From positions 58,415-122,414 of the forward strand of contig JAFUYO010000024.1 in assembly GCA_017470505.1 (NCBI GenBank): DNA of 64,000 nt. Direction: 5' to 3'. The notes under the pieces were generated by a model. The model worked only from the letters and a program-made list of their open reading frames with translations, was not told the DNA's origin and searched no databases. This DNA comes from Butyrivibrio sp. Its GTDB lineage: Bacteria > Bacillota > Clostridia > Lachnospirales > Lachnospiraceae. Of this stretch, positions 5,534-39,056 are shown one piece after another; within the stretch, counting starts at the first letter, position 1; the number at the start of each line of letters is the position of its first letter. Both the position numbers and the translations under genes were made by a program.

Positions 5534-5824
5534 TTATTCAAAGTGAATTTTTTTATCAATACCAAGTGACCTGAAAACTGAGAGGATTTTTTCGGGTGTG
5601 TTCTTTATCTTGAGGTGCCCGTCCATCTTTTTAAAGGTGGCAACCACCTGCCTGACACCGGCTGAAGAGATGTACTCAAGTTCTTTTAAGTCAAACTCAA
5701 TGTTCTCAATATCCTTCCCGATATTCTTTATGACCTCATCAAGCTCGGATGCCGCCTGAGTGTCAAGCCATCCATCGAGCCTCAGCTCGGCGCAGTTACC
5801 TGTTATCTTCTTAATGATTTTCAT
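5534..5824 (-). CDS. STAS-domain anti-sigma factor antagonist
   Basis: This 96-aa single STAS domain resembles SpoIIAA/RsbV. The central FDLKELEYISSAGVRQVV segment carries the conserved phosphorylatable serine pair (SS before AGVR). By family knowledge, the dephosphorylated form captures an anti-sigma or anti-regulator ATPase and releases its target. It is the last gene of the long operon and lies 24 bp after a phosphatase/ATPase fusion gene, the natural enzyme pair for phosphorylating and dephosphorylating it. The controlled target (a sigma factor or another protein) is not encoded in this window. Confidence 0.9.
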   Translation of the reverse strand: MKIIKKITGNCAELRLDGWLDTQAASELDEVIKNIGKDIENIEFDLKELEYISSAGVRQVVATFKKMDGHLKIKNTPEKILSVFRSLGIDKKIHFE

Positions 5825-5848
5825 TGTCCCGCCCCTTCTTTCCTTTCA

Positions 5849-7849
5849 TCACCTGTTAAAAGTGACAGTGAGAATGTTCATTCCGTCTTCTCTCTTATAG
5901 CCTATCGAATCCGAGTATTTTCTCATGAGCGCGATACCCATGCCGCCCTTGTCAAGATTGTTAAACTCAGGAATCTCCCTGTTGTAGAACACCGGATCAA
6001 AGGCCACACCGTCATCTGAGAGTGTAAAGCTCACCTTCCCGGCATCCTCGCCGCAGTCAAATAAAATATGTTTCGCCTCTGAATATGATACTATATTACT
6101 GAACGCTTCTTCAAGGCACATGATCATGGTCTTAGCTCTTTCTTCGTCGCTGTTAAGCTCATAGACCTTCTCCTTTATCCTGCCAAACTCATTCATGTCG
6201 GGATAAAGCTCCAATGCCCCGGCCTTCTTTTCTCTGTGATAAATGACTGCGACACCTGTTATGTCATCAAACTGCTCGGCCTCACCCACAAAGCTGTCCA
6301 GATCCTTTATCACTTCACGGATTGCGCCTCCGGCAGCGCCATGTTCTCCATCACCCCCGCCTTTGACGAACCTCAAAAGCGCATCCATCAGCCTCTTTTC
6401 CCTGAACTGTTCGTCAGCGGCATCGATGGCCTCGGTGATACCGTCCGTATATATGAAAAGACCCTCTCCGTCTTTCAGCCTTATCTCGTACTCTGCCATA
6501 TCTGCGCATTCAAATATACCGATCGCAATCCCGGGGTCAACACTTATCTCACGGACATCGCTCCCAAACAAAACAGGCGGGTTGTGACCTGCATTTACAT
6601 ATCTGACAACTCCGCTTTGCGTGTCCAGAATCCCCACAAAAACCGTGGCAAACATGCACTCGGGATTTGATGCGTATATCTCATCGTTTACGGCATTGAC
6701 CGCACCTGAAAGAGTTTCTCCCGATCTTATCTTTTCCCTGAGACAGCTCCTTACCATCATCATGAAAAGCGCTGCCGAAACACCTTTGCCTGAGATGTCT
6801 CCAATCGCAAACATTACCCTGTTTTCATCGAGCCCAAAAAAGTCGTAGAAATCGCCTCCAACCTCCTTGGCAGGTCTCGAGTATCCCTCTATGTCGTACC
6901 CCTTGCCCGAAAAGGTCCTGCCCTCCGGAACGATCCCCGACTGTATCCTCCTTGCAATGTCGAGCTGTGTCTGAACCGATACCCGGTCAGCCGTCAGGTT
7001 TTCGATGTCGTAGACATACTGGTGGATGTCGGTTTCCATCTTGTTAAAAGAGTCCTCGATATCGCTGATCTCGTCCCTGAAGCTGCTTTTTGGTATCACT
7101 ATCCTGTTCTCTTTTCCCTCGATGAAATGATTCATCTTGCCTGAGAGAAGTATTATCGGTCTTGCAATGTGTACCCTGATAAGAGTGACGCTGATAAAAA
7201 ATGTGATGATAGCAACTATGGCTCCCATTATTACGATAGTCAGATAGTTGTACTTAAGGACCGAAATGATGAAATTGACATCGTAGTCAGCTCCAATCAG
7301 CGCCACTACATTGCCGCTTCCGTCTCTGACCCCCGTAACCCACATGCACACAAAGCCGTATTGGTTGTTCACGATCTGAAAATCGCTGTCTCCTTTTCCG
7401 GCAAGGACCTTCTTTTCGCAGTCGTACATCTTTCTCGACGTCTCCGTGCCGTAGCTGAAGTTTTTCTGAAGCATCTCATCATCCTCATCAGAAAGAGCTG
7501 ATGCCACAATGTAGCGCGTAGTTTTCTCATCCTCAAAGGTGTACAGGTACATGTATCTCAGCCCCGACCTCTTGCACAATTCCCTGAACCTCTTGTGCAG
7601 GTCTTCCCATTGCCCCTGCATATCTTTAATGTCACAGCCGTCTTCTTCAATCATGTCCTCGACGAGTTCAGACGCGCCAAGAAGAGCAGTCATAGCCATA
7701 TCACTGCTCTCCTGAATCGTATTCTTTATTATGAGTCTTCCATTAACGAGGACCGCGACGATCATTGCTAAAAGAAGTGCTCCAAGCTGTATCAGCGCAA
7801 TCTGTACCGTAATGGAAATCCTCGGTTTTTCCTTTACTTGCGTTCCCAT
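5849..7849 (-). CDS. Membrane SpoIIE-type PP2C phosphatase fused to an anti-sigma-type ATPase
   Basis: The 666-aa protein has a transmembrane helix near residues 12-35, an extracytoplasmic sensor region, a second helix (about 205-230), a HAMP linker, a SpoIIE/PP2C domain (KEVGGDFYDFF, GDISGKGVSAALF, FIYTDGITEA) and a C-terminal GHKL ATPase domain (EEAFSNIVSYS, GGMGIALMRK). Such proteins both dephosphorylate a STAS antagonist and carry a serine-kinase-like ATPase, so they act as bifunctional switches responding to an outside signal. The start overlaps the preceding gene by 16 bases. The STAS protein encoded directly downstream is the probable substrate. Confidence 0.93.
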   Translation of the reverse strand: MGTQVKEKPRISITVQIALIQLGALLLAMIVAVLVNGRLIIKNTIQESSDMAMTALLGASELVEDMIEEDGCDIKDMQGQWEDLHKRFRELCKRSGLRYMYLYTFEDEKTTRYIVASALSDEDDEMLQKNFSYGTETSRKMYDCEKKVLAGKGDSDFQIVNNQYGFVCMWVTGVRDGSGNVVALIGADYDVNFIISVLKYNYLTIVIMGAIVAIITFFISVTLIRVHIARPIILLSGKMNHFIEGKENRIVIPKSSFRDEISDIEDSFNKMETDIHQYVYDIENLTADRVSVQTQLDIARRIQSGIVPEGRTFSGKGYDIEGYSRPAKEVGGDFYDFFGLDENRVMFAIGDISGKGVSAALFMMMVRSCLREKIRSGETLSGAVNAVNDEIYASNPECMFATVFVGILDTQSGVVRYVNAGHNPPVLFGSDVREISVDPGIAIGIFECADMAEYEIRLKDGEGLFIYTDGITEAIDAADEQFREKRLMDALLRFVKGGGDGEHGAAGGAIREVIKDLDSFVGEAEQFDDITGVAVIYHREKKAGALELYPDMNEFGRIKEKVYELNSDEERAKTMIMCLEEAFSNIVSYSEAKHILFDCGEDAGKVSFTLSDDGVAFDPVFYNREIPEFNNLDKGGMGIALMRKYSDSIGYKREDGMNILTVTFNR

Positions 7850-8721
7850 GTCATCTTCCAGTTGATGTTGTTCTGATATTTTCGCTTTGACAGTTTCTCC
7901 TCAATTTCCTCTTTCCGGCTTATCGAAAGCATCGCCCCATCTTCCGAAACGGTAGCTTTAGAATCGCCAATTATATGCTTTCTTGCAGCGCACACCTTTC
8001 CAAGGTTGCTTAAGCTGTACTGCTTATCCAGGAGGCGCCGTAGTAGCGGCGAAATCGTCCTGTTCGCCTCTATCATCACGATCTGCCTGTACACATCAAC
8101 AAGGTCAATCCCGATCAGTTCCTCTGCAAATCCCTGGACAGCCGCCATTATGTATTTGGGGTCGTTTTTGCCAAGGCCGTAGAGGCACTCTATCAGAATA
8201 TCCTCGCCGCTTGCGCACACGAGTATTACAGACCTTATCTTCATGTTTTCATCGTAGGCAATTCCGCTCAGGTCCTCATCGAACCTTCCTATATCCGCCG
8301 CCTTAAGAGGGATGTTCTCCTCCTCCCAAAAGTCCGCAAGCTCCGAGAGCTGATACATCATCAGATCGCGCAGAGGATAGTAGCTGATACCCTCGAACTT
8401 CATCCCAAGGGACTTTTTGACTGCCTTTGACAAAAAGAGCTCCTTTAAGTTTACGCCGATAATGCTGTGGGAGTCCTGTATCTCATAGCCGGCAAAGCCC
8501 GTTATTTCCATAAGCTTTGAGTCCATCCCCGGGAAAAAGAAGGAAATATCTTCATACCCCAAAGAAGCAGCCACGCTCCCGGCAGCTTCAAAAAGCCCCC
8601 TTTCGTAATCCGAGTACAGGATCCTTACGCCTTTTTCACCGGTTGAAAGAACAAGCTCATTTCCATCATCATCAGAAATCAGGTAGTTTCCGTCTGAGAT
8701 AAGTGATCTTTTATAGCTCAT
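7834..8721 (-). CDS. Unknown protein, possible tandem-GNAT-like fold (A)
   Basis: I chose the start MSYKRSLISD because its ATG overlaps the upstream stop (ATGA) and a GGGGAGG ribosome site lies 8-9 bases before it; the frame stays open for ten more codons upstream. The product is 295 aa. It has the same two-part layout as the products at 12753 and 18905: an N-terminal half ending in a region like GYEDISFFFPG, then a second half with a strand-helix pattern like LSGIAYDENMKIRSVILV. I infer a divergent double-GNAT fold without an obvious acetyl-CoA loop, suggesting a binding rather than catalytic role. The similarity is weak and judged by eye. Confidence 0.75.
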   Translation of the reverse strand: MSYKRSLISDGNYLISDDDGNELVLSTGEKGVRILYSDYERGLFEAAGSVAASLGYEDISFFFPGMDSKLMEITGFAGYEIQDSHSIIGVNLKELFLSKAVKKSLGMKFEGISYYPLRDLMMYQLSELADFWEEENIPLKAADIGRFDEDLSGIAYDENMKIRSVILVCASGEDILIECLYGLGKNDPKYIMAAVQGFAEELIGIDLVDVYRQIVMIEANRTISPLLRRLLDKQYSLSNLGKVCAARKHIIGDSKATVSEDGAMLSISRKEEIEEKLSKRKYQNNINWKMTWERK

Positions 8722-9575
8722 GACCTGACCCTCCCCTTTTTGCTGATGCACAGAAAAGTAGCGTCTTCAGAAAGCTCGCACCCCTTAATAAATGTGGAGA
8801 GTTCTCTTTCCAAAAGACCTACAGTCTCTTCTGAGTCTGAGTTTCTGCTATTTTCAAAAGTGCTGACGAGATGCTCCCTGCCAAACATCTCACCCTTATC
8901 GGACCTTGCAAGCGTAACCCCGTCCGTGTACAAAAGAAGCTTATCGCCATCGGAGAGCTTAACCTCATAGCTTGTGTACTTAACTCCGCCTATTACGCCG
9001 ATGAGGTAGGATATCTTTTCCTCAGGGATCGGGACCACTTTGCCGTCATGCAAAAGAAGCGGCGGCTCGTGTCCTGCGTTTACCGCAACGAGTGTCCCTG
9101 TCGATATCTCATACTCGCCGTACCAGGCTGAGAGCGAGAGGTTATCGGTGTTCTCAAAGCACAGACTCTCATTCACGTTCCTGATCTTGTCAGCAATGTC
9201 ATCGTCTATCCACTGCTGCGAAGTCATATAGAGCTTGAACGCCACCATGAAAAGAGCTGCAGCAGTGCCTCCGTCAAAGATATCAGCGACGACGATCCCG
9301 ATGTGGTCGTTATCGAGTCTGTAGAAATCGTAGTAATCCCCTCCGAGCTGCCTTATCGCAACCATATCGGCATAGATGTCAAAATTCGGGATATCGGGGA
9401 AAGCGGGATAAACATTTGGCATGAGGTGAAACTTCATCCTCGTCGCCATACCAACTTCGCTTTTCAGGTGCTCGTTCTCTTCTTCAAGGGCCTTAATCCT
9501 GTCCCTCAGAGCTTCGTTTTCGCTCCTTATTCTATCTGCCTCTGTCCCGGCTTCTTTTTTAATATCGTTCTCCAT
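8718..9575 (-). CDS. Soluble SpoIIE-family PP2C phosphatase
   Basis: This 285-aa cytoplasmic protein has an N-terminal coiled coil (RIRSENEALRDRIKALEEEN, residues about 14-45) followed by a SpoIIE phosphatase domain: RQLGGDYYDFYRLD, VVADIFDGGTAAALF, AGHEPPLLL and LLYTDGVTLAR. The acidic metal-binding positions are kept, though the usual D-x-SGKG loop reads DIFDGG. It probably dephosphorylates a STAS-type antagonist. With the membrane phosphatase 3 kb downstream, it gives the operon two separate phosphatase inputs. The stop overlaps the next start (ATGA). Confidence 0.92.
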   Translation of the reverse strand: MENDIKKEAGTEADRIRSENEALRDRIKALEEENEHLKSEVGMATRMKFHLMPNVYPAFPDIPNFDIYADMVAIRQLGGDYYDFYRLDNDHIGIVVADIFDGGTAAALFMVAFKLYMTSQQWIDDDIADKIRNVNESLCFENTDNLSLSAWYGEYEISTGTLVAVNAGHEPPLLLHDGKVVPIPEEKISYLIGVIGGVKYTSYEVKLSDGDKLLLYTDGVTLARSDKGEMFGREHLVSTFENSRNSDSEETVGLLERELSTFIKGCELSEDATFLCISKKGRVRS

Positions 9576-9579
9576 AGAA

Positions 9580-10101
9580 TCACTCCTGCAAAAACAGTGA
9601 TGGAATAGTTTCCGCTTTTCTCTTCCCTTCGTTCACTTCCAGGAGCACATAGGCGTACTGGCTGACTACCTGGATGGCTGTGCCCATAGACAGGTCGATC
9701 CTCTCCTTCATGGCATCCTTGTCAACATCGAGTGTCATCTCGGTAGTGTGCCTGTAAATAAGGCTCCCGCCTGCCGGGTCGATTGCAAAGCAGCCCGCAA
9801 TGATGAAGGTATTAATTATGGAGACAGCTCCCATGAGTTCCGCAAGATTTTCGGCTACGAGATCGCTGCTAATCGTAACGAGATTTACAAAGAACTGCAT
9901 CTCATCATCATCGCTGCCCGGCATGAAAAAGAACTCTCCTCTTGCATCTTCGCCATCCTGGGCGAGGTCCTTCATGATGATCGAAAGGACCTTGGCGCCG
10001 CCTTCCTCTGTGAGAACTGCCGGGAAAAGCTCAGCGTTAAACTCCCCTTCAATCGCCTTGAGCACGCTCTCTCTGTCTTTTAATAGTTTTTCGGATTTCA
10101 T
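9580..10101 (-). CDS. YbjN-like (type III chaperone-like fold) protein
   Basis: I chose the ATG of MKSEKLLKDRES, preceded by AAAGGAGG at ideal spacing, rather than the ATG seven codons upstream. The product is 173 aa. The pattern EDARGEFFFMPGSDDDEMQF followed by an amphipathic helix and a small-residue strand (NTFIIAGCFAIDPAGGSLIY) resembles YbjN/CesT-like alpha-beta proteins, which often act as chaperones or adaptors for larger partners. It is encoded next to the 865-aa protein, so it could be a chaperone for one of the giant operon products. Family placement is tentative. Confidence 0.7.
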   Translation of the reverse strand: MKSEKLLKDRESVLKAIEGEFNAELFPAVLTEEGGAKVLSIIMKDLAQDGEDARGEFFFMPGSDDDEMQFFVNLVTISSDLVAENLAELMGAVSIINTFIIAGCFAIDPAGGSLIYRHTTEMTLDVDKDAMKERIDLSMGTAIQVVSQYAYVLLEVNEGKRKAETIPSLFLQE

Positions 10102-10112
10102 CTCTGCCTCCT

Positions 10113-12710
10113 TTATCCGCAAAGCTTCCTTACAATGTCTGAAGCCGTGGGTACATTCTTTGCCGCGTTGTATGAAAGGCCAAGTCCCTTTATCATCTCT
10201 ATGCCAAGTATGCCTTCCGGCCCTACCTGATTTGCTTTATCGAGGAGGTACTCAGCGTACTTTACTGCCGCTGCCCTGGCCGCATGATGCGGTGAATAGA
10301 AGCCGAGCCTTGATGCTATACGGTTTCTGACCTCCTGCCTGAGCTTTACCTGCTCCTTATCTGTCAAAAGTCTCCCGGATTTTTGCTCAACTCTCTGTTT
10401 GGCCGTATCGAACGCCCTGTCAACCTCATAGTAACTGTCGAAAAGAGCATCCTTCATCTTGCCTGAAAACGACTGTTCTATGGCCATTGACCCCACAGAT
10501 AATGCAAGTGCAGCTACTCCGGCCAGGGCGGAAATACCACATGTCACAACGGAAGCTGCAAACAATATCCCCGCAGTGGCGGTGAGTGCTGTACTCATGC
10601 CTGATGTAACTGACGTCGTGAGCTCTTTGTTTCCAAGCTCCACATTCATTTCAAGTATTCCCTTTTCGAACTTGTCAAGCTGCGCTCCGCCACGTCTCTT
10701 CATTTTTGCAATTGCAACTGCGTTTAAGCGATGATATCCGTTTCTGATATTCGTTCCGATCTGAAGCCCTGTTATCGCTGCGCTCGCGCCAACAACTCCT
10801 ACTACCGCTGCCTGACCCGTTACTATTTTAACTGCGGAATTTGTAAAATCGCCTACGCCGCTGATAAAGTTGGTGAGCTTCTGTGCGGTCGCCCCGGCTC
10901 CTACAAGAATACCGCCTGTTGAAGCAGTAATTTCAAGTCCCGACATGCTCTTTCCGCTGTTATAAAGGTTCATGGCAGTGACCACTCCGTTTACTACCGT
11001 TCCGATAGTTGCCAGTCCTGCGCCTGCTCCGCCAGTGATAAGCCCTAATGATTTAACATCTGCATCATTCATTTTAAAGAGCGAAACAGTGTGTTCATCG
11101 GTCATTCCGTTCTTTACTATAGTGGTCAGGCTGCTCAGATTAGTGGGTGTCGTCCCAGCAAATGCCTTGACAGTAGCCTTTGTTTCAGCGTATGACTTGC
11201 TCGTCTTCTCAAGAAGGTCTTCATCCTGAACCTCGCTTCCGTCTTTATTAAGAGGCACGGCATCGTCGTCCTCGAGCGGCTGCGGAACTCTGATGTGGTC
11301 CACCTGATTCACGATGTTCATGGAATCCGTGAGCTTACTCCAGTATATATATTCGCCCGAAAAACGTTTGTAGAACTTCAGCTTTGTGGGGATCATCTTT
11401 TTCTTGAACTCATCGACATCCAAAGTGAAGTTCTGTGAGTTTATAAAGCTGTCAATAGTAGGTTCTTTTCTCTGATCAGTCTGAACAAGATAGTACGCAA
11501 ACAGACGCTTTCTCCTGCTCATGGAAAAGAGCCTGTTAATAATGTCGGTCCTGTCTGCCATTACGCGGAACCAGCCACCGTTTCTGAAGTTCCTGGTAAT
11601 CCAGGTATCTATGCGGGATAGAGCTCTGACCTGTCTGTCAGTCAGATTGTCTTTCTCTGTCATAGAGTCTTCTCTTACCCGCGCCCTCTGAGCCTGCCCC
11701 TCTCCTATCTGGGCAATTTCCTCGGCGTGGCGCTCTATAAGCCCTGTCGTCTCGTTTTCAAAAGCCTCTGTCAGTCCTTCATTTTTAGCCTTGTCCCTGA
11801 GCATCATCTGGAGCCTTAATGATTTGTACTGCTCAATTATAAAGTAGTCCTCACCTGTGGGGTTATCAGTGCTTTCGGCAAAGATCTTTATATCCCTCTC
11901 ACATGTCTTAATAACATTCCACTTCTTCCTGATCTTCTCCTCATCGTCTGCCACAAAGTCATCGTCGATTCTCTTGCAGAACTCCCTGAAATACTTGGAA
12001 AAACGCCTCACATTATCCCTGGCAAAAGCTGTCTCCTGCCTGCTCGGCAACATGTTCTCATCATCATATACCACAGCTCCGTCAGAGGCAACAATGTACC
12101 CTGCAACCTGGTCGAGCCGGTGCCTGATATCCCTGGCGGCATTAAGCCTTTGCATATCAAGCGTATTCCCGGAGCTCTTGTTGTGGGTTACATACTGATC
12201 GCAGGCCTCATACAGCCTTAAAAACTGAGTATAGTTCTCATCGGAAAGTTCAAACCCTTCACCACTCTCTAATTTTTCGATAAGCTCATCGGACTGATTT
12301 ATCGTCTTTCTCAGATAGTTAAATGACTCGGACTGCTTACGGGTATTGATATTAAAGTCAGTAAACACTTCAAAAGAGTCATTGAGGTTTGCAAAACGGA
12401 ATTTATAATTTTTTTTGGACTTGTTCTGAAGGTCAGACTTCTGAAGGTCAGACTCAGACAATATAATCTTATTATCTTCAGAATCGATTGAGAGATTTAC
12501 AAGACTCTGACGCTCTTTCTTATTTTTCTTAAGGTCAAAGGAATTCAGCTCATCTTGAGAATCAAATGAGCTGTTAGCATTGCCCTCATTGAATTTGTTA
12601 ACTGATATAAACTCTGTACTTTTAGAGTGCTGAATCACGGCGGTGTCAATAACGCCGTCCAAAAGATTACTGCTTTTCTTATTTACATTTTTCAGATTGT
12701 GATCAAACAT
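10113..12710 (-). CDS. 865-aa protein with Gly/Ala-rich hydrophobic core, unknown function
   Basis: I do not recognise a family. Residues 1-115 are low complexity (Ser, Asn, Lys, Asp) and include a short tandem repeat, SDLQKSDLQ. Residues 120-510 are predicted to be helical and highly charged. From about residue 545 to 745 there are several Gly/Ala/Val-rich hydrophobic stretches (GAGLATIGTVVNGVV, GILVGAGATA, VVGVVGASAAITGLQIG, GISALAGVAALALSVG), like glycine-zipper or pore-forming helices. The last 120 residues are helical and basic. There is no signal peptide. It is encoded between the YbjN-like protein and a GNAT-like protein, so membrane insertion of a regulated effector is an attractive but unproved idea. 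Confidence 0.85.
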   Translation of the reverse strand: MFDHNLKNVNKKSSNLLDGVIDTAVIQHSKSTEFISVNKFNEGNANSSFDSQDELNSFDLKKNKKERQSLVNLSIDSEDNKIILSESDLQKSDLQNKSKKNYKFRFANLNDSFEVFTDFNINTRKQSESFNYLRKTINQSDELIEKLESGEGFELSDENYTQFLRLYEACDQYVTHNKSSGNTLDMQRLNAARDIRHRLDQVAGYIVASDGAVVYDDENMLPSRQETAFARDNVRRFSKYFREFCKRIDDDFVADDEEKIRKKWNVIKTCERDIKIFAESTDNPTGEDYFIIEQYKSLRLQMMLRDKAKNEGLTEAFENETTGLIERHAEEIAQIGEGQAQRARVREDSMTEKDNLTDRQVRALSRIDTWITRNFRNGGWFRVMADRTDIINRLFSMSRRKRLFAYYLVQTDQRKEPTIDSFINSQNFTLDVDEFKKKMIPTKLKFYKRFSGEYIYWSKLTDSMNIVNQVDHIRVPQPLEDDDAVPLNKDGSEVQDEDLLEKTSKSYAETKATVKAFAGTTPTNLSSLTTIVKNGMTDEHTVSLFKMNDADVKSLGLITGGAGAGLATIGTVVNGVVTAMNLYNSGKSMSGLEITASTGGILVGAGATAQKLTNFISGVGDFTNSAVKIVTGQAAVVGVVGASAAITGLQIGTNIRNGYHRLNAVAIAKMKRRGGAQLDKFEKGILEMNVELGNKELTTSVTSGMSTALTATAGILFAASVVTCGISALAGVAALALSVGSMAIEQSFSGKMKDALFDSYYEVDRAFDTAKQRVEQKSGRLLTDKEQVKLRQEVRNRIASRLGFYSPHHAARAAAVKYAEYLLDKANQVGPEGILGIEMIKGLGLSYNAAKNVPTASDIVRKLCG

Positions 12711-12752
12711 ATGCCGCCCTTTCCGCCAAACGAAGCTTCGGCAGAATAATCA

Positions 12753-13604
12753 TTAAATATTTAAGTATTTGACAAGAAGCGTGGCTCCTTCTGCTCCCGG
12801 ATATGGATATTTCATGAGTATCCACCTCTTTAGAGGGTTATTATTTTCAATCACATATTTATACGAATATACCATATTCTTTGACAACAGATCACATACA
12901 AAAACTGCCATTTTTTCCAGAATGTTTTCATTCGGAGCGATAGTCTTACTGACTACAAGCCTTCTGCCTTCCCTCAAAATTATGATAGCGCCGCAAAAGT
13001 CCCCCTTGGACTCATAGAGGACAGAGAAATTTTTGTCTGCCATGTCAAACGCATGTATGCTTCCAAGTCCAAGGCTCTTCGCGGCATTTTCAAGGTCGCT
13101 GCCGGTAAAGCCTTTGAGAGCGCCTACAAAGGGCCTCGCCGTAGCAACTTCCATCTCATCCTGAAGCAGAAACCCCGACGCTATCTGCTTCCCTCTTATG
13201 ATAAGCGGGGCGGTATCTGATCTCTTTTCATCAAATCCGTGGGACAAAAGAAATTCTGACATCCTCGCCCTGTCTGAATCTGCCGGGGAAATCAGATCGT
13301 TATAGACAAGTGCCGTGACTTTTCTTTTGCCTTCCCTTGCCGCAAGTTCAAACAGGATTTTCAGCATATTGCTGCCAAATAAGCTGTTTCGTCTCTCATC
13401 TGCGACATATATCCAGAGAAGTTCAAATGCATCCTCCGAAACCTTAACCTGAAGAAAAGCTTTTTCCTTACCACTTTCCCTCGTATCAGCTAAATAGCCG
13501 CCGATATTTCTGATGTTTTTCTCCCTGCCCCGGGAGATTACATATCCCGGAGCAAGGTGGGAGAAATTCATTAACAGATTGTCACTTATCTCTTCAAAAT
13601 ACAT
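12753..13604 (-). CDS. Unknown protein, possible tandem-GNAT-like fold (B)
   Basis: This 283-aa protein has an N-terminal half with a GNAT-like order: a strand ending FELLWIYVADERRNSLFGSN, a helix with AAREGKRKVTALVYNDL, then FLLSHGFDEKRSDTAPLI. This resembles acetyltransferase motifs A and B, but the acetyl-CoA loop (Q/RxxGxG/A) is not convincing. The second half (FSVLYESKGDFCGAIIILREG) repeats the fold. It sits 7 bp after the kinase-like ORF and shares overall design with the products at 18905 and 7834. It is likely a degenerate acetyltransferase-fold binding protein of this operon. Confidence 0.75.
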   Translation of the reverse strand: MYFEEISDNLLMNFSHLAPGYVISRGREKNIRNIGGYLADTRESGKEKAFLQVKVSEDAFELLWIYVADERRNSLFGSNMLKILFELAAREGKRKVTALVYNDLISPADSDRARMSEFLLSHGFDEKRSDTAPLIIRGKQIASGFLLQDEMEVATARPFVGALKGFTGSDLENAAKSLGLGSIHAFDMADKNFSVLYESKGDFCGAIIILREGRRLVVSKTIAPNENILEKMAVFVCDLLSKNMVYSYKYVIENNNPLKRWILMKYPYPGAEGATLLVKYLNI

Positions 13605-13610
13605 ATTTTA

Positions 13611-14846
13611 TCAGCTTACCTTTTTCTTCTCTTCTTCTATTCTCTTATCGAGCTCGCCATCTTGAAATAACCCGGAATAGAGGTAACTGACATTTTCAAG
13701 ATCCTTAGTTTGCTGTCTTCTCCGGCTGTTCATATTCTGATTATTGACCTTTTCCATCAGTGCTTTAACTGCACGGAGAGCTCTCAGATCATCGCTCTGT
13801 TTAAAACGGACTGTCTCAGAGGTAATTACGGTTCCCGAATTAACCTTAAGCTCGTTTGTCACAACTTCCATATCAACGCGCTGCTCGCCATCATCATCAA
13901 CGATATCATCGTCATCATCATTATCATTATTCTGAAGCGCTCTTATATTCTCCTGTATATACTTTACCCGCTCCATAAATGCAGACAGTTCATCGCTCTC
14001 AACGATATCACCGAGCATGACAGCAGCGTTTTCACGTGTTATGGAAAAAATCATGTTGATAAAAGAGGAAGGAAGACCCTTTAGCACCTCATTGTCAAGC
14101 GGCCTTAAATGTCTGAAGCCTTCGGCCATATCCTCAGGTTTTAAAAGTCCCCAACACATATCATTGTCAATTGCACGCAGGGCGGTTATGGTATTCGTCT
14201 TTTCGTCTTTGAGCACATGGAAATTGCCAAAGTGACGATCTGTATGGCCTATCAGATAGTCGAAAACCTGTAGTACGAGGCTCTGTTTTATTGCTTCTGT
14301 AGAATACGAGGGCACGTTATCTTTTTGTTTTTCCACAATATCGAATATTTCCTCTCCGCCGCTGTCTTCCATGAGATTGCCCTTTACCAGCTCATCTCCG
14401 ATTTTGACCGTCGCTGTCCTTGATGCTGATACCATGTGACCGATCCCCATGAGCTGTGCAAACCTGCTGGTGGCAACATGTCTGTTGCTTAGGTTTCTTC
14501 CGGGTCTTATCTTGGCGCTCCTGTTATAGTACCTGGAGCCCGGATCATCACCAAAGCAGTTATCCCTCTTGTACAGCAGCATATTTAGTGAGATAAAGTA
14601 TTGTCCGGCCTTTAAGGTATCTTTTTTGAATATTTCATTGATACTGTCCTGATATACACGTGCTGAAAATAATGCGTTCTTTGCAACAAGAGACATTATT
14701 TCATCGGCAGCATCGATACTGCTGTAAGTTTTGCCGCTCTTTTTGTCTTCTTTTCCGATTTTCTCCCTGATTTCCGCTATTTTCTCCGAGAGTTCTCTGT
14801 AACTGTCATAATCGGTATCAGGGGACTTTAAAAAGCGCTTTCCCAC
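13611..14846 (-). CDS. PI3/4-kinase-like domain ORF (C-terminal part of a split giant protein)
   Basis: The 411-aa ORF from a GTG contains a kinase C-lobe of the PI3/4-kinase, HipA and actin-fragmin-kinase type: DYLIGHTDRHFGNF provides the catalytic Asp and Asn, and LRAIDNDMCWG is the metal-binding DxD/DFG-like segment. SASRTATVKIGDELVKGNLM resembles the hinge region. No good ribosome site precedes the GTG. The same frame is open for another 42 codons up to a TGA and continues as the 1295-aa ORF, so this is probably the end of one 1749-aa protein. The N-lobe (TIFFRKEDFAP, with the likely ATP lysine) lies between the TGA and this GTG and is lost if translation starts here. Confidence 0.75.
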   Translation of the reverse strand: MGKRFLKSPDTDYDSYRELSEKIAEIREKIGKEDKKSGKTYSSIDAADEIMSLVAKNALFSARVYQDSINEIFKKDTLKAGQYFISLNMLLYKRDNCFGDDPGSRYYNRSAKIRPGRNLSNRHVATSRFAQLMGIGHMVSASRTATVKIGDELVKGNLMEDSGGEEIFDIVEKQKDNVPSYSTEAIKQSLVLQVFDYLIGHTDRHFGNFHVLKDEKTNTITALRAIDNDMCWGLLKPEDMAEGFRHLRPLDNEVLKGLPSSFINMIFSITRENAAVMLGDIVESDELSAFMERVKYIQENIRALQNNDNDDDDDIVDDDGEQRVDMEVVTNELKVNSGTVITSETVRFKQSDDLRALRAVKALMEKVNNQNMNSRRRQQTKDLENVSYLYSGLFQDGELDKRIEEEKKKVS

Positions 14847-14972
14847 CTCTTCAAGGCTAAGTGCCAGGGATTTATCCTTTACTTCTCCAAAAACCTGCTT
14901 TGCAGTATCATTAATTGAATCCTCAACTTTTTCCTTTGGTGCAAAGTCCTCTTTTCTGAAAAAGATGGTCTT

Positions 14973-14975
14973 TCA
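14973..14975 (-). other. In-frame TGA separating two halves of a 1749-codon reading frame
   Basis: The minus-strand codon order is ATC AAA AGT AAG GAA ACC TGA AAG ACC ATC TTT. Upstream 1295 and downstream 453 codons are open in the same frame. A GGA (Gly) at this position would give KETGKTIFFRKED, a normal-looking kinase glycine-loop strand, one base away from what is seen. Confidence 0.9.
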
Positions 14976-17900
14976 GGTTTCCTTACTTTTGATCATTGAA
15001 ATATCAGAGAGGTTTGCTCCGGTCTTTTTAAGTGTTACTCCCTCCTTATTTGTATCATAGAATTCAGCCCTTGTGAATTTAAGAACCTCCATCCACTTTG
15101 GTTCTTCGCCGCCGGCTTCCTTTTTCTGTGACATGAGTTCAAAATAATCAGCTGCCTTCTGGGGAAACATCTCCCTGTCAGCCCTGCACCTTGCAATGGT
15201 GGCATCAAGGCTGTCCTTAAGCGCTTTAAACTCGGCGGGAAAAGCTTTTGTTTTATTCTCTATTGCTTCCTTAATACTGTTTAAGTTGTTTTCAATTTCT
15301 GTATAGCATATTGTGACCAGATTGCAGGTCCCATCTATTATTTGCCTTGCGTTCTTTGTTCCGGGCGCAGGCACGGTAGTATAGAGCATAACCGCCTGAA
15401 GCTTATTGATGGACTCCTGAAGGCTGCCTGTCTTATTCTTAAGAGCTCCCTTTAAGTTTTTGGTGAGCGTATCCGACTTGCTCAGTTCTTCAAAGAATTC
15501 GCTTCCGAGCGTAAAGCTCTCCCTGTACCTGTTTTGCTGGATCTTATCAATCGCCCTCATCCTTACGGCTTCATCTGATTCACCCCTGTTTTTATCAATG
15601 AGTTTTCTCTTTTCATCAAGTACACTCTTAAGATCAGTGTTTGGAGTAAAGTCAGGTTTTTGCGCATTATCAAGAAACTCCCGGCTGTTTCCGCCGTAGT
15701 AATTTTTGGCAGTCTTTAAGAATTCGATCCTTGCCTTTATGGTTGCAAGGTCTGTATCAGTAAGTACCCTGTCCTGAACCTTCGTCTCATAGAACGAGAG
15801 CATTTCATCCGCGCCGCTCCCAAGGTCAGAGAGCTGCCGAAGTTCAAATGATTTTTTGTCAAACAGTTTCTCATAGCTGTCAAAATTAAAGTCACCCGGG
15901 TTAAATGAAAGAATCTTTTCAAAGACCGACTCTATCCGGCTTACAGTCTTTTTCATGTCTTCTTTCTTATCATCTTTTGTATCTACTTTGAAAAGTGCGT
16001 CAAGCTCTTTTGCAGCTTCGTTTTCCTTGAGGTATTCTTTATAATCCTCGTCGTACTTGTTTACCTTCTCCTTCAGTTCATCTTCATTTCCATACTTTTC
16101 CGTAAATACTTTAAAATCGTAGGCAGCCGCCTCTTCCTTGTAAAGACGTGTGAAGTCAGTGTCCATATTTACAGACTCATACACAAGGTTTTCCTTATCA
16201 ATAACTCTTGTAGTAATATCAATCTGAGTAAATGCAAGACGATTCCTCACATTTAAATAATTTTCCTGTTCCTCATTCAAAAGCCCCAGTTCTTGCTGTG
16301 ATTCATATGTAAGATCAGAAACATCAGTAGCGGCTTCTTTGTTTATTCCACCACACATATCTTCAAGTGAAACCGTATGCCTGTATTTAGTGCTGTTCCC
16401 CTGTGTCAATCCCTGAACACGTCCCGATATATATGCCTGTGCAAAGCTTTTTAAAATATGAGTATTTCTGTAGATCTCATCAGCTTTACTGCCTACTCTT
16501 CTAAGCCTTTCCTCTTTGCTTAGTTCCTGCTCATTCGGAAACAGAATCTCAAATGCATCATCTCCCAATTCTGTTGCAAGCATTCTTATATTATTGCCGA
16601 TTTTTTCGCAGTTAGCCAGCCAGACTGCCTTAACGGCTTTCCTGGTAAAACCGGTGAAGAATTTATTCAAATCCTTCATCTCATAGTCCTCAGGCTTTAC
16701 ATCCATGTATTCCCTATAGAATTCCAGCCAGAACTTAATATGATCCTTTTTAGCAGCTTTTGGGTCCTCTTTTGAACCGGGCTTATCCGATTTATGCCCT
16801 GCGTAAAGCTTTAAGAGCCTGATCGTATCCTTTTCGCTTCTGCCGGCCAGAAAGTCCCCTCCTTCTCTTGGGAGACTGCCATAGGAAAACCCTTTACTGA
16901 ATTCCTCGGGGTGTTCTTTTATGTACTTCGTTGCTATATTGTCTCCAGCGGCTTTAGCTGCAAGAATCTTGTCGTTTTGTGCTGCCAGGTAGTCTGCAAT
17001 AAATGCATTTGTCTGATACTCTGCCATTTTTTGCCTGACAAGCCCCTTCGGCAGTTCGTTGTCGACGCCTCCCAGCAATTTCCGGGTATTTCCAATAGTC
17101 TCCTCTCTGTCATTATGTTCTTTTGTTATCTGCTTAAGGCACTTCTTGTAGAAATCATTCATATTCTTACACGGAAGCGCGGTATAATCTTCTCTGCCGA
17201 ACTTTAATCTTTCATTAATAAAGAAACTATCCCATTTATCAAAACTCTTTTCGTAATTTTGTACACCATCTCTTTTTGAATCAACTTTGAAAAATTCAGT
17301 AAATGTGTATAACACATTACGGATCTCATTGAAAGCTACAATCTTAGCCCGCAGCTTAATAAGCTCACTATCCTTAAACTTCTTTCCACTAATCAGTGCC
17401 TTGGCAATAAGAGTCTGCACTTTGTCAGCTTTTCTTGCCAGATTCATGTTGTGGTCATAGTTTTCCAATATTTCCCTGTAGCTTCCAAATTTGAACAGAT
17501 TTATATCGATACTCTTAAAATCACTTATTTCCTTATCCAGGTCCTTAAGATCCGGTTCCTTGTATGATTTATCCAGTTCCTCGAGGGTGTACGTGCTGTT
17601 GGAAATAATCTCCTTGCCCTTTTTGACAAGCAGCTCTCTCCCCTTCGGAATCTGGTCATAGAGATCAGTGGCAGTCTCATCAGTTTTCTTATGATAGTCA
17701 GAAAGAAGTTTTTTCCTCTTTTCTTCGCTTTCCTCTATCTCTTTGGCATTTTTCTCATATTCTCTGCTTAGAGAGCCTTTCAGCTCAGGAACTGCCATTT
17801 TGTCTAGAGCTTTCTGCGTGGCACCTCCCACCTTCATAAGGTGCACTCCGGCATAGTACGAATTCAATAAGAGCTTTGCAACTTCCTTCCGGTCTTCTGT

Positions 17901-18860
17901 TGCATTCTCATCCACATCAATGGAAAGTTCATCGTTATAGTGCTCCCGGTAGTACTTATTGTTAATCAGCTCTTTCCTTGCAACATAATAGCAGGCCACA
18001 GCGCGGAGCATCTCTAATCTCTTTGTGACCTCGGCAAAAACAGAGTTTTCCCCTTCTTCCTTACTTTTAAGGCTCTCCGCATAATCGGGGTTTTCGCTAA
18101 GTAACCTGTCATAGGCGCCGACCATTCCCGTGATCTTTTCCAGCTTCTCGCTGTTCTTTGCGATGTCCTTGTCATTTTCAAGAGATATCTTTGATACGTC
18201 AGCCTTAAGGAGGGTGGCCGTTATCTTATCAAGTGCTGCCACTCTGTCCTGCGCTGTAGCTTCAATTTCATTTGTGCCGGAATAAAGTGTTACAAGCTCA
18301 GCATTAACTTCTTCATCATCAGTTTCCATAAAGTAAGACAGATCTCTTGCATTTTCCAGGGAGAGCCTTTTATTATCAGAGGCAGCCTCAGCGGCCCTGT
18401 CATAATACTTTTTGGTTGCAGTCTCTGCCGCTTTACCCAGAGCAGAATAATACTGTGCCTTCTTAAACAGGCGTGACCTCTTGTTCTTGATCTTGGCTGC
18501 CCTCTGATTGAGGTCAAGGTTTTTGCTGCGACCTTTGTACTCGCCAAGGAGAGCGCTCTTTGAAGGGAGGGTTGATACCTTAAACTTTTTGATCGATTTG
18601 GATACACCTACATACTGTTTAAATTCCTCCGCCCTCTGCTCGCTCTTGTTCAGATAGGCGCTCAGGTCCAGCTGTTTAACGGCTTCCTTGTTTTCAAGGA
18701 GATCGTCATTTTGTTTATCTCCCTCTTTGATTTCCTCAAGCGGGTTCTCCTTAAGCGCAAACTGCGGCCTTAACAGGTCCTCTTTTTCTTTCAGTATCTG
18801 CGGCTGCTCAAATACCTGTTTATTCTGATTCAACTCGTCAAGCTTTTCTTTTTGCAGCAT
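14973..18860 (-). CDS. Giant helical protein, N-terminal part of a split kinase-containing polypeptide
   Basis: This is a 1295-aa ORF with a strong GGAGGG ribosome site. The sequence is almost entirely charged and helical (many Lys/Glu/Asp, coiled-coil stretches), with no signal peptide or membrane segment. I recognise no domain in it. Its last residues (KKTGANLSDISMIKSKET) look like the first strands of a kinase N-lobe, which continue in frame beyond the terminal TGA into the 411-aa kinase-like ORF. It is the second gene of the long operon, 44 bp after a GNAT-like gene. Size and composition suggest a scaffold or effector; function is unknown. Confidence 0.85.
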   Translation of the reverse strand: MLQKEKLDELNQNKQVFEQPQILKEKEDLLRPQFALKENPLEEIKEGDKQNDDLLENKEAVKQLDLSAYLNKSEQRAEEFKQYVGVSKSIKKFKVSTLPSKSALLGEYKGRSKNLDLNQRAAKIKNKRSRLFKKAQYYSALGKAAETATKKYYDRAAEAASDNKRLSLENARDLSYFMETDDEEVNAELVTLYSGTNEIEATAQDRVAALDKITATLLKADVSKISLENDKDIAKNSEKLEKITGMVGAYDRLLSENPDYAESLKSKEEGENSVFAEVTKRLEMLRAVACYYVARKELINNKYYREHYNDELSIDVDENATEDRKEVAKLLLNSYYAGVHLMKVGGATQKALDKMAVPELKGSLSREYEKNAKEIEESEEKRKKLLSDYHKKTDETATDLYDQIPKGRELLVKKGKEIISNSTYTLEELDKSYKEPDLKDLDKEISDFKSIDINLFKFGSYREILENYDHNMNLARKADKVQTLIAKALISGKKFKDSELIKLRAKIVAFNEIRNVLYTFTEFFKVDSKRDGVQNYEKSFDKWDSFFINERLKFGREDYTALPCKNMNDFYKKCLKQITKEHNDREETIGNTRKLLGGVDNELPKGLVRQKMAEYQTNAFIADYLAAQNDKILAAKAAGDNIATKYIKEHPEEFSKGFSYGSLPREGGDFLAGRSEKDTIRLLKLYAGHKSDKPGSKEDPKAAKKDHIKFWLEFYREYMDVKPEDYEMKDLNKFFTGFTRKAVKAVWLANCEKIGNNIRMLATELGDDAFEILFPNEQELSKEERLRRVGSKADEIYRNTHILKSFAQAYISGRVQGLTQGNSTKYRHTVSLEDMCGGINKEAATDVSDLTYESQQELGLLNEEQENYLNVRNRLAFTQIDITTRVIDKENLVYESVNMDTDFTRLYKEEAAAYDFKVFTEKYGNEDELKEKVNKYDEDYKEYLKENEAAKELDALFKVDTKDDKKEDMKKTVSRIESVFEKILSFNPGDFNFDSYEKLFDKKSFELRQLSDLGSGADEMLSFYETKVQDRVLTDTDLATIKARIEFLKTAKNYYGGNSREFLDNAQKPDFTPNTDLKSVLDEKRKLIDKNRGESDEAVRMRAIDKIQQNRYRESFTLGSEFFEELSKSDTLTKNLKGALKNKTGSLQESINKLQAVMLYTTVPAPGTKNARQIIDGTCNLVTICYTEIENNLNSIKEAIENKTKAFPAEFKALKDSLDATIARCRADREMFPQKAADYFELMSQKKEAGGEEPKWMEVLKFTRAEFYDTNKEGVTLKKTGANLSDISMIKSKET

Positions 18861-18904
18861 AGCGTACCCTCCTCGTCTTATAAATGATTGCAGTTCAAAA
18901 TATA

Positions 18905-19744
18905 TTATGGCATAAAGAACTGAACTACTGCCTCTGAGTGTATATTTGCCCTATCGCCCGTAAGCTCATCCATAAGTTTTTTGTGTTCGTCAGACAGCGG
19001 AGAAAAAAGAATCTGAACATCTTCGAAGATTTTCTCCCTGACAGCTTCCGCCGCAGTGATGATAAGGTCCAGCATCACCGGGTAGGCTTCTTCACCAAAC
19101 ACCCGCAGATGATCCAAATTTATTCCGTTTTTGTCTGTGTCTGCCAGCAGAGCTCCCTTCACCTTGCCCATATCGGATAAATACACAAAGCTTAAGTCTT
19201 CATCGTAGTAGTCCCTCGGAGCCAAAGGAAGGTAATAACCCTCTTCATCATCTGCATCCAGCTCTTTCATCTTTTTTTCGTATAAGTTCCACTGAGTGTG
19301 CGAGATGTCTTTTAAGGGAACTATGTCAGAGACTGCCTCTTTTTGCGGAATATCGATATCAGATAAACTGATGCTGTAGACCTTGGTCGTCGCTTCTTCA
19401 AAAGTGACAAAGCCGCAGCTGTCCAAAAGCTCATACACTCCGTCTCCCAGCGGTTCCCTGGCATGGACGCAGGAAATCATTTCTGCCTGCCCTGCAGCGG
19501 CATATTCCTTGAGAGCTTTTATAAGTTCGCTCCCTGCTCCCTTCATCCTGTAGCCCTCTGCCACATATATGTAGGTTATGACAAGGCTCGCCTCCTCATC
19601 AATGAGAGCGGCAAGAACTCCACAGGCTGTATCGGTATCCTCATCTATCGCACCGAGAAACAGATCGTTGTACTTAAGGACGTCTCTTGGGATCGTCTCC
19701 AAGAACATTCTCTCATTTTCTCTGGTGAGCTGTACAATTTTCAT
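18905..19744 (-). CDS. Tandem GNAT-fold protein (C), first gene of the partner-switching operon
   Basis: This 279-aa protein has the clearest GNAT domain of the three: EASLVITYIYVAEGYRMKGAGSELIKAL includes the RxxGxG/A acetyl-CoA loop (RMKGAG), followed by AEMISCVHAREP and LLDSCGFVTFE. A second, degenerate GNAT half occupies residues 150-279 (LSFVYLSDMGKVKGALLADT). It may therefore be an active N-acetyltransferase or a binding protein. It is the promoter-proximal gene, with GGAGG about 15 bases before the ATG, and its promoter carries the motif shared with the kinase/FHA operon. Confidence 0.8.
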   Translation of the reverse strand: MKIVQLTRENERMFLETIPRDVLKYNDLFLGAIDEDTDTACGVLAALIDEEASLVITYIYVAEGYRMKGAGSELIKALKEYAAAGQAEMISCVHAREPLGDGVYELLDSCGFVTFEEATTKVYSISLSDIDIPQKEAVSDIVPLKDISHTQWNLYEKKMKELDADDEEGYYLPLAPRDYYDEDLSFVYLSDMGKVKGALLADTDKNGINLDHLRVFGEEAYPVMLDLIITAAEAVREKIFEDVQILFSPLSDEHKKLMDELTGDRANIHSEAVVQFFMP

Positions 19745-21673: not shown

Positions 21674-22189
21674 TCATTGTCTCAACTCATCAATAAACCG
21701 GTATCCCTTTGGAAGATAAAAACCTTTCTCCATTTCCTCCGGCATTGGATGAGATAACTCCTCGTCATTTCTGTAATCCAGCGCAGTCTTATTCCTGAGG
21801 AACCCCTTGTGGTTATAAAAACCTACTGCCCCGGGATGGGTGTGCAAAAATGGATTAAGGCCATCTTTTTGGATGTCTTCCCCAAGATTCTTAACTACCT
21901 CCCAGCCAATTCCAAGACCCTGATAGTCAGGATCCACGGCCACATTCTGGATATATGCTTCCTCAACGCCATCTGTTATAGCTCTTGCGACCCCGATCAG
22001 TTTTTTCCCATCATAGGCAAATGATACATAGTCACTTAAATCAAAAAGGAATTTGGTTCTATCCACCTTTTCCTTAGTGATCTCAATTACCTCATTTCTC
22101 TTTCTTCCGAAAGCACCTGAGAGTACCTCTGTGACTCTCTCATAATCTATTCCTGATCTGTCGGATGTATAGAAAAGATCAAGGTCTGC
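21674..22189 (-). pseudogene. GNAT acetyltransferase lacking a normal start
   Basis: The frame reads as a GNAT enzyme of about 170 aa: YTSDRSGIDYERVTEVLSGA at the N-terminus, then IQNVAVDPDYQGLGIGWEVV with the acetyl-CoA loop (QGLGIG), and GAVGFYNHKGF. No ATG, GTG or TTG exists in frame at the homologous N-terminus. The only available start is a GTG at 22066 (VDRTKFL), which would give 130 aa and drop the first strand and helix. The upstream sequence merges into the tail of the OppF-like fragment. It is therefore probably a truncated relic, though the shorter form could still fold. Confidence 0.7.
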
Positions 22190-32229: not shown

Positions 32230-32500
32230 AAATAAAAAAACTGTCCCTGTATGAAGTTTCATACAAGGACAGGACTGTTATCCTGCGGTGCCACCTTGCT
32301 TATCGGAAGATCCGATCTCTCATGAGAAAGCCAACACTTTCTCTACTCTGTAACGGGAGTTCCCGTCGAATACTACTTGGGTTATCGCCCTTTCGCTTCG
32401 CCCTCAAAAGTCCATTCCTTCATCCATCCACTGCATCCTCTCACCACCGGATACTCTCTGTGAGCTTCTCAAATGAAGTACTCTTCTTTCTCATTGGTTT
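32230..32500 (-). promoter_or_regulatory. T-box riboswitch, tRNA-Trp specific
   Basis: The minus strand carries the conserved T-box AAGGTGGCACCGC (32285-32297). A GAGTA (AGTA-box) element lies near the 5' end, GGTGGTGAGAGGATG follows in stem I, and the specifier-loop context GAATGGAC puts UGG at 32412-32414. It ends in an intrinsic terminator (32241-32272, about 14-bp stem, then T7). Uncharged tRNA-Trp would favour the antiterminator and allow expression of the ECF/larA operon. Confidence 0.9.
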
Positions 32501-32505
32501 AGCAA

Positions 32506-39039: not shown

Positions 39040-39056
39040 AAGGCCCCTCTCCCGTT

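What the first reader, a model, noticed from the sequence alone, without database searches (positions are those of the whole stretch)
5534..19744. Ten-gene operon joining a partner-switching module to giant helical, hydrophobic-core and kinase-like proteins
All genes lie on one strand with tiny gaps or ATGA overlaps. The promoter is near 19840 and there is no internal terminator. The operon contains the three parts of a partner switch (STAS antagonist, SpoIIE phosphatase fused to an anti-sigma-type ATPase with HAMP and membrane sensor, and a second SpoIIE phosphatase). It also encodes large proteins not known from such systems: 865 aa with glycine-zipper-like helices, 1295 aa helical, a PI3/4-kinase-like domain and three GNAT-like proteins. 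No sigma factor is present. The switch may therefore control the activity of the giant proteins directly, perhaps as an inducible effector or stress assembly. The system is not one I can name.
Basis: partly seen in the sequence, partly recalled or inferred. Interest (0 to 1): 0.85.

Follow-up and report, generated by a model that had tools for sequence, protein, structure and literature searches.

The report
Remote effector operon for bacterial nanosyringe
This gene cluster in a gut-type bacterium most likely makes large proteins, with their own loading helper and an on-off switch, for a phage-tail-like injection machine encoded elsewhere in the same genome, which suggests how such machines get exchangeable, separately controlled payloads.

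Summary
The ten-ORF minus-strand unit is real and most likely an unlinked effector operon of an extracellular contractile injection system (eCIS). The same genome carries an eCIS on contig C39. Among 397 family genomes the 865-aa family occurs in 10, of which 9 have the eCIS marker Pvc16_N; the 1295-aa family occurs in 8, all with it; the marker occurs in 39. In genome G041 relatives of most of these genes sit beside or inside an eCIS cluster. The 865-aa family has a polar leader, a helical body, hydrophobic C-terminal helices and, in some members, extra N-terminal heads. A small partner with a type III secretion chaperone fold directly follows it in 39 of the 41 loci that hold its 3' end. STAS and SpoIIE genes lie near eCIS markers more often than scatter predicts. 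The 1295- and 411-aa ORFs look like one effector gene split by an in-frame TGA; G041 encodes them fused. Secretion and the switch's target are inferred. A same-genus genome lacks both eCIS marker and operon.

The parts
18905..19744 (-). 279-aa GNAT-family protein, upstream partner of the 1295/411 effector
   Evidence: Acetyltransf_1 E 1e-8; homologue lies directly before the fused helical-kinase effector in G041
14973..18860 (-). 1295-aa helical carrier half of an effector, with a polar N-terminal leader
   Evidence: homologues in 8 of 397 family genomes, all Pvc16_N-positive, the weakest at E 4.6e-5; Q+N 20% and polar 62% in the first 60 residues
14973..14975 (-). single in-frame TGA between carrier and kinase halves; frame open for 42 codons beyond it
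   Evidence: one fused ORF in G041 and, for the last part of the carrier, in an own-genome paralogue on contig C41
13611..14846 (-). 411-aa HipA/PI3-4-kinase-like domain, enzyme half of the same effector
   Evidence: weak PI3_PI4_kinase and HipA_C hits; D196, D203-R204-H205, N208 and D227-N228-D229 conserved in 85-100% of 26 aligned rows, two of which repeat another row
12753..13604 (-). 283-aa GNAT-like protein, upstream partner of the 865-aa effector
   Evidence: a GNAT-like gene is the previous same-strand gene in 22 of 46 loci of the family; alignment A6; this protein itself has no Pfam hit at E 0.01
10113..12710 (-). 865-aa effector/cargo: disordered leader 1-99, helical body about 100-470, low-confidence middle, hydrophobic helical C-terminus
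   Evidence: alignments A1 and A4, model m9f959761acf4, co-occurrence with eCIS marker
9580..10122 (-). 180-aa YbjN-like protein with type III secretion chaperone fold: proposed loading chaperone of the 865-aa effector
8718..9575 (-). 285-aa SpoIIE-type phosphatase with N-terminal coiled-coil-like stretch
   Evidence: PF07228 E 5.4e-35; 52% identical homologue in L030
7834..8751 (-). 305-aa protein of the switch group, GNAT-like only by eye
   Evidence: no convincing family; homologues beside SpoIIE/STAS in L029 and L030 and beside SpoIIE in G307
5849..7849 (-). 666-aa membrane sensor (by eye) with SpoIIE phosphatase and RsbW/SpoIIAB-like ATPase domains
   Evidence: PF07228 E 1e-43, PF13581 E 1.2e-13; sub-cut-off SiaA and SpoIIAB matches
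5534..5824 (-). 96-aa STAS antagonist protein
   Evidence: PF01740 E 9.5e-11; TIGR00377 ant_ant_sig below cut-off; 54% identical in L030
19770..19963 (-). intergenic region with RNase Y terminator-like hairpin and promoter-like TATACT
   Evidence: read by eye; not listed by the scan

Best explanation
The operon is a chromosomally unlinked effector (cargo) operon of the eCIS encoded on contig C39 of the same genome. It makes two large cargoes. Cargo 1 is the 1295-aa helical carrier with its kinase domain, now split by one in-frame stop. Cargo 2 is the 865-aa protein with a disordered polar leader, a helical body and hydrophobic C-terminal helices. The 180-aa YbjN-like protein holds cargo 2 in a loadable state, as type III secretion chaperones do for theirs, and the GNAT-like proteins are cargo-specific partners, either modifying enzymes or adaptors. 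The AAA ATPase of the C39 locus would thread the cargo by its leader into the tube, and the hydrophobic helices would help it cross or disrupt the target membrane. The STAS, SpoIIE-ATPase and SpoIIE genes form a partner switch that sets when the effectors are made or loaded. Shown: gene content, co-occurrence with an eCIS marker, linkage in relatives, and the predicted chaperone fold. Inferred: loading, secretion, enzyme activity, target and switch output.
For: Own-genome eCIS: Pvc16_N E 9.5e-26, sheath E 1.1e-16, tube gp19, DUF4280, gp25, Phage_base_V and AAA. Co-occurrence: 865-family 9 of 10 against 30 of 387, Fisher p 3e-9; 1295-family 8 of 8 against 31 of 389, p 4e-9. Rosetta locus G041: GNAT, fused 1295+411 homologue, GNAT, fused helical-protease protein, SpoIIE, YbjN-like, 865-family, GNAT genes, then an eCIS cluster with STAS and HATPase-type genes, a few other genes lying between. 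G307: eCIS genes, 1295-homologue, GNAT, several SpoIIE proteins, 305-homologue and a protein 28% identical to the SpoIIE-HATPase protein over residues 279-662. In G196 and G016 the 865-homologue follows the eCIS AAA ATPase gene. Chaperone pairing and fold. Polar leader: Q 12.6% in 37 cargoes against 2.3% in 199 other ORFs, p 1.5e-17, like the 50-70 aa disordered loading signals of PVC payloads (PMC11495950, passages). Extra N-terminal heads in longer members, read by eye as cysteine-protease-like or lipase-like (sub-threshold Pfam support in 2 of 5 proteins tried). STAS within 25 kb of Pvc16_N in 11 of 39 eCIS genomes (1.8 expected), SpoIIE in 13 of 39 (2.0 expected). A same-genus genome without the marker has RNase Y and DtxR side by side with no operon.
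Against: No experiment shows secretion. 30 of 39 Pvc16_N-positive genomes gave no 865-family match, so it is one lineage's payload, not a core part. One 865-positive genome (G023) has no Pvc16_N hit, though it is only 60% complete. The genomes are related, so the Fisher values overstate independence. The kinase family is wider than eCIS: 10 of its 46 positive genomes are Pvc16_N-positive. A YbjN-family protein has this fold without evidence of a secretion role (PMC5398634, search listing). The cargo model gave only weak fold matches. The GNAT-like partners are not all enzyme-competent: 14 of 24 carry any [RQK]xxGx[GA] motif in the first 130 residues, some at unlikely places. Heads of three of the five long members tried gave no relevant Pfam hit, and two heads searched against PDB sequences gave nothing. 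The split kinase half lacks a clear ribosome-binding site, by eye, so cargo 1 may be dead.
Confidence: 0.8

Rival explanations
1. The partner switch is a cell-internal stress or regulatory circuit whose direct clients are the giant proteins; nothing is exported.
For: No SigB/F/G hit above cut-off in the 84%-complete genome, so the switch output may be a protein other than a sigma factor; the switch genes are contiguous with the 865-aa gene in L030 and L029.
Against: Giant-protein families track the eCIS marker, carry polar leaders and, in some members, extra heads, pair with a secretion-chaperone fold, and often show no switch genes nearby.
Confidence: 0.08
2. The proteins are exported effectors of another system (for example a type VII-like system), and the link with eCIS reflects shared ecology.
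For: The operon is unlinked to the eCIS in this genome; a type VII toxin with a membrane-depolarizing C-terminus is known (EsxX, PMC12744356, search listing). A type VII system was not searched for.
Against: In G041, G307, G196 and G016 the homologues lie inside or next to the eCIS cluster; 7 of 46 loci hold the eCIS AAA ATPase near the gene, two of them being the G016 and G196 contigs again.
Confidence: 0.08
3. The operon is an anti-phage defence or abortive-infection unit with a kinase toxin.
For: Kinase ORF weakly matches PADLOC PDC-M03A models, E 5.6e-6 over about 35 residues.
Against: None of the other nine proteins matches PADLOC at E 0.01; tblastn of the 865-aa protein finds nothing in 50,697 phage records; linkage is with eCIS.
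Confidence: 0.03
4. The 1295/411 interruption is functional: the stop is bypassed or the halves are made separately, so that carrier and enzyme levels are tuned.
For: The own eCIS locus shows the same arrangement: a 989-aa helical ORF and a 477-aa protease-like ORF in one frame with a single TAA. Among same-frame pairs of open stretches of 200 or more codons in the window and L014-L074, cases with 40 or more open codons before the next start that are not antisense to a longer ORF were only these two and the AAA gene of G196, the latter seen in L016 and again in L073, the same contig.
Against: G041 has both halves in one ORF; the stops differ (TGA, TAA); the genome is a draft, and nonsense decay of effectors is the simpler reading.
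Confidence: 0.12

Closest known systems
eCIS payload systems (PVC/Afp type; Pvc15-dependent loading)
   Same: Phage-tail-like particle genes, AAA ATPase, Pvc16_N, disordered N-terminal leader on payloads (PMC11495950, passages)
   Different: Payload operon is unlinked, carries a type III secretion chaperone-fold partner and its own partner switch; the payload family has no significant match in Pfam, NCBIfam, PHROGs or PDB sequences
Type III secretion class I chaperones and YbjN/DR_1245
   Same: Same predicted fold, gene next to its presumed client
   Different: No type III system was looked for here; sequence similarity is below Pfam's cut-off in the window member (YbjN E 0.0017); 10 of 22 members match YbjN at E 0.1 or better
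T6SS Eag chaperones with membrane-domain effectors
   Same: Small cognate protein for an effector with hydrophobic helices (PMC7773334, abstract)
   Different: Different injection machine; Eag clients have N-terminal membrane domains, here the hydrophobic helices are C-terminal; which part of the cargo is bound here is unknown
Tme, tape-measure-related CIS effector of Streptomyces davawensis
   Same: Large CIS effector with hydrophobic and disordered regions plus an enzyme domain (PMC11126660, passages)
   Different: Enzyme domain is C-terminal and DUF4157 is present in Tme; here extra heads are N-terminal and Pfam found no DUF4157 in the proteins scanned
RbaVWY partner switch controlling the gene transfer agent RcGTA
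   Same: Partner switch governing a phage-like particle, no cognate sigma factor found (PMC3999984, abstract)
   Different: Different particle; here switch genes are physically inside the payload operon and near the eCIS cluster

Membership tests
eCIS effector (cargo) | genome encodes a contractile injection system | tested here: met
eCIS effector (cargo) | family co-occurs with eCIS across genomes | tested here: met
   9 of 10 and 8 of 8 positive genomes carry Pvc16_N, against 39 of 397 overall, 38 of them over the cut-off
eCIS effector (cargo) | encoded next to eCIS structural genes | tested here: inconclusive
   not so in this genome; so for homologues in G041, G307, G196, G016
eCIS effector (cargo) | disordered N-terminal loading leader | tested here: met
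   residues 1-99 pLDDT under 50; leader composition; loading function itself untested
eCIS effector (cargo) | present in particles and delivered to target cells | not testable with these tools
   needs experiment
Type III secretion chaperone-like (YbjN superfamily) | alpha-beta chaperone fold | tested here: met
Type III secretion chaperone-like (YbjN superfamily) | sequence above family cut-off | tested here: not met
   YbjN 19.0 bits against 22; CesT_Tir_1 15.2 against 27
Type III secretion chaperone-like (YbjN superfamily) | binds its cognate effector | not testable with these tools
Partner switch (Rsb/SpoIIA type) | STAS antagonist, ATPase kinase and PPM phosphatase present | tested here: met
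Partner switch (Rsb/SpoIIA type) | cognate SigB/F/G-type sigma factor | tested here: inconclusive
   none above cut-off, but the genome is 84% complete and 6 sub-cut-off hits exist; a sigma-free output remains possible
HipA/PI3-4-kinase-like | conserved catalytic DRHxxN and DND motifs | tested here: met
HipA/PI3-4-kinase-like | above Pfam cut-off | tested here: not met
   PI3_PI4_kinase 18.1 bits against 27.1; HipA_C 14.7 against 30.5
Known defence system (PADLOC) | matching system genes | tested here: not met
   only the kinase ORF matches, weakly

The most novel reading that the evidence does not exclude
A Gram-positive eCIS draws interchangeable, enzyme-headed cargoes from several unlinked chromosomal operons, each cargo pre-bound by a type III-type secretion chaperone and a GNAT-fold partner, with loading or deployment gated by sigma-independent partner switches present both near the eCIS cluster and in the remote operon.
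Probability: 0.4. Interest if true: 0.85.

Novelty: new variant of a known kind. Interest (0 to 1): 0.74.

Why it matters
To my knowledge, how eCIS particles choose payloads and what controls them is little known, especially in gut Firmicutes. If this is right, payload genes must be sought genome-wide and not only beside the structural genes; the chaperone-fold gene gives a simple tag for finding them; and partner switching becomes a testable controller of these particles. The loading idea can be tested directly by pull-down and particle proteomics in cultured Butyrivibrio-type strains.

Tried and rejected

Literature limits: no paper joining this effector family, YbjN/CesT-type chaperones or partner switches with eCIS was seen in searches. 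Only listed rows were looked at (25 of 222, 20 of 30, 0 of 0, 10 of 56, 7 of 7, 6 of 22, 8 of 45 and 1 of 1 in that order), and the library holds open-licence papers only. In two eCIS papers (PMC8213781, PMC11297309) a term search gave no YbjN and, in the first, no STAS domain or GNAT. Statements on DUF4280 being PAAR-like, on SiaABC, on FtsE-like genes and on class I type III chaperone features are recalled.

Counting choices: of 46 loci, 5 were set aside for the chaperone count because the effector gene runs off the contig (L034, L051, L064, L066, L067). In one search, 26 rows include the window twice (as L121) and the G041 kinase twice (L122, L155). In one search two of the 11 STAS matches (G357, G104) and the own C39:93876 match run over an in-frame stop, and one of the 39 genomes (G163) has a Pvc16_N match below the cut-off.
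Full report
The observation. Window 5534-19744 holds ten consecutive minus-strand ORFs of 279, 1295, 411, 283, 865, 180, 285, 305, 666 and 96 aa with short gaps or overlaps. Pfam confirms STAS, two SpoIIE phosphatases, an RsbW/SpoIIAB-like ATPase domain and one GNAT protein; the kinase, YbjN and second GNAT matches are sub-threshold, and the 865-, 1295- and 305-aa proteins have no convincing family. RNase Y lies upstream and a DtxR-type regulator downstream.

The largest gap, 126 bases between the 1295- and 411-aa ORFs, is not a usual gene boundary. Both lie in one frame with a single TGA between them, and the frame stays open for 42 codons beyond it. In genome G041 the 1295-type helical region and the kinase are one 1084-aa ORF, and a paralogue on contig C41 of the same genome joins the last part of the 1295-aa protein (query residues 1142-1287) with the kinase in one 983-aa ORF. 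The own eCIS locus holds a second such case: a 989-aa helical ORF and a 477-aa protease-like ORF in one frame with a single TAA. I read both as interrupted effector genes; a programmed bypass is possible but not shown.

What it is. A search of the own genome found Pvc16_N and a tail sheath gene on contig C39. The region around them encodes tail tube, DUF4280, gp25, Phage_base_V spike-type and AAA proteins, a weak Baseplate_J match, plus a STAS gene and a HATPase gene. At its ends lie SpoIIE phosphatases, a GNAT-like protein and the split helical/protease effector. Two paralogues of the 865-aa protein sit on contigs C33 and C49, each with a YbjN-like gene and one or two GNAT-like genes; these contigs have no STAS or SpoIIE match.

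Co-occurrence. In 397 genomes of the family, the 865-family profile matched 10, the Pvc16_N model 39 (38 over its cut-off) and the 1295-aa protein 8. Nine of the 10 and all eight are Pvc16_N-positive (Fisher p 3e-9 and 4e-9; without the own genome 3e-8 and 4e-8). The exception, G023, is 60% complete. The genomes are related, so these values overstate independence. The kinase alone is broader: 46 of 397 at E 0.001, of which 10 are Pvc16_N-positive; at E 1e-15 it is 8 genomes, 6 of them positive.

Linkage. G041 places, in order and with a few other genes between, a GNAT-279 homologue, the fused 1295+411 homologue, a GNAT-like protein, a 2413-aa fused helical-protease protein, a SpoIIE phosphatase, a YbjN-like gene, an 865-family gene, two GNAT-like genes, and an eCIS cluster, fetched as far as its STAS and HATPase-type genes (Pvc16 87%, sheath 85% identical to the own eCIS). 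No relative of the 305-aa or of the fused SpoIIE-HATPase protein was the best match there. G307 places a 1295-homologue, GNAT, several SpoIIE proteins, a 305-aa homologue (32%) and a SpoIIE-HATPase-like protein (28% over residues 279-662) beside eCIS genes. G196 and G016 have the 865-homologue directly after the eCIS AAA ATPase gene.

Across 46 named loci, mostly Lachnospiraceae and Butyrivibrio metagenome assemblies, 5 are cut inside the gene. Of the other 41, 39 have the YbjN-like gene directly downstream, one upstream (L031) and one none (L032). A GNAT-like gene is the previous same-strand gene in 22 of 46. Seven of 46 hold a homologue of the eCIS AAA ATPase nearby, not counting a generic AAA match in L029; two of the seven (L067, L073) are the G016 and G196 contigs again. 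Ten of 46 show a SpoIIE phosphatase or stand-alone STAS (L029, L030, L035, L037, L039, L047, L050, L053, L057, L058).

The same site in relatives. L030, whose RNase Y is 98% identical, has RNase Y, GNAT (21%), 865-family (1375 aa, 29% identical over residues 124-865), YbjN-like (48%), SpoIIE285 (52%), 305 (39%), SpoIIE-HATPase (43%), STAS (54%), rsmF (56%) and ABC transporter (77%), in this order, without matches to the 279/1295/411 genes or DtxR. L035 has RNase Y, DtxR, GNAT, 865-family, YbjN-like and SpoIIE285 up to the contig end. In G207, a same-genus genome of 100% completeness without Pvc16_N, RNase Y is followed by DtxR (90%) after about 130 bases. The operon is therefore an accessory unit at a conserved site, and its effectors differ far more than RNase Y does.

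The effector. Aligned members share a region corresponding to residues 121-865. Longer members carry extra N-terminal stretches. Those of L030 and L070 look cysteine-protease-like and those of L050, L053, L055, L057, L061, L064 and L066 look lipase-like, by eye. Of five long members scanned, Pfam gives sub-threshold support for two only (L070 Peptidase_C39 E 0.042, L050 Lipase_3 E 0.086) and none relevant for L030, L053 and L036. The first 60 residues are rich in Q and other polar residues (Q 12.6% in 37 cargoes against 2.3% in 199 other ORFs, p 1.5e-17; hel1295 has Q+N 20%). The AlphaFold2 model has mean pLDDT 64: residues 1-99 disordered, a mostly confident helical body at about 100-470, a low-confidence stretch at 473-645, and a helical C-terminus whose hydrophobic part is again low (711-736). 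PVC payloads carry 50-70 aa disordered loading signals that act with the AAA ATPase Pvc15 (PMC11495950, passages).

The switch. All three components are present, but no SigB/F/G homologue passes its cut-off in the 84%-complete genome. In 39 eCIS-marker-positive genomes a STAS gene lies within 25 kb of Pvc16_N in 11 (1.8 expected if scattered), ten of them at 17.4-20.5 kb, and a SpoIIE gene in 13 (2.0 expected); short contigs make these lower bounds. A partner switch for which no sigma factor was found controls the phage-like gene transfer agent of Rhodobacter (PMC3999984, abstract). I take this as a model: the membrane phosphatase-kinase and the second phosphatase set the phosphorylation of STAS, which then acts on an unknown target that controls production or loading. 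This is inference, with confidence about 0.5 for effector control of some kind and less for a direct, sigma-free output.

Verdict. A real, accessory effector operon, conserved in part in relatives, of an eCIS: a new variant of a known kind. Confidence 0.8 for eCIS cargo.

Noticed in passing
window 32262-32503, minus strand: T-box leader (Rfam RF00230, 121 bits) upstream of a small membrane protein gene (31606-32166) followed by ABC transporter-type genes.
   Followed up: no
window 22147-22632, minus strand: 161-aa ORF whose start looks like a peptidase (by eye) and whose middle matches oligo_HPY of peptide transporters: probably a remnant or chimera.
   Followed up: no
window 36414-40235, minus strand: Ser/Thr-kinase-like, FHA-like and second kinase-like genes next to each other (by eye).
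   Followed up: no
G000 contig C52 36861-41371, about 17-22 kb before the window start on the same contig: Two more ORFs with the same HipA/PI3K-like kinase motif (625 and 675 aa) and a GNAT-like gene.
   Followed up: partly
L016 around 8320 (G196 contig C33): The eCIS AAA ATPase gene is split by one in-frame TAA in this genome, while the G016 homologue is one 710-aa ORF.
   Followed up: no
L030 against window: RNase Y is 98% identical between the two genomes while the effector at the same site is 29% identical: strong diversification or allele exchange at the operon.
   Followed up: partly
G000 C39:93876-94166: Another STAS-like match beyond the upstream end of the eCIS cluster; it runs over one TAA, which may be just the end of its own ORF.
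   Followed up: no
L014, L015, L041, L048, L056, L058 and others: A membrane protein of about 350 aa, seven-helix-like by eye, recurs beside the GNAT and effector genes; role unknown.
   Followed up: no
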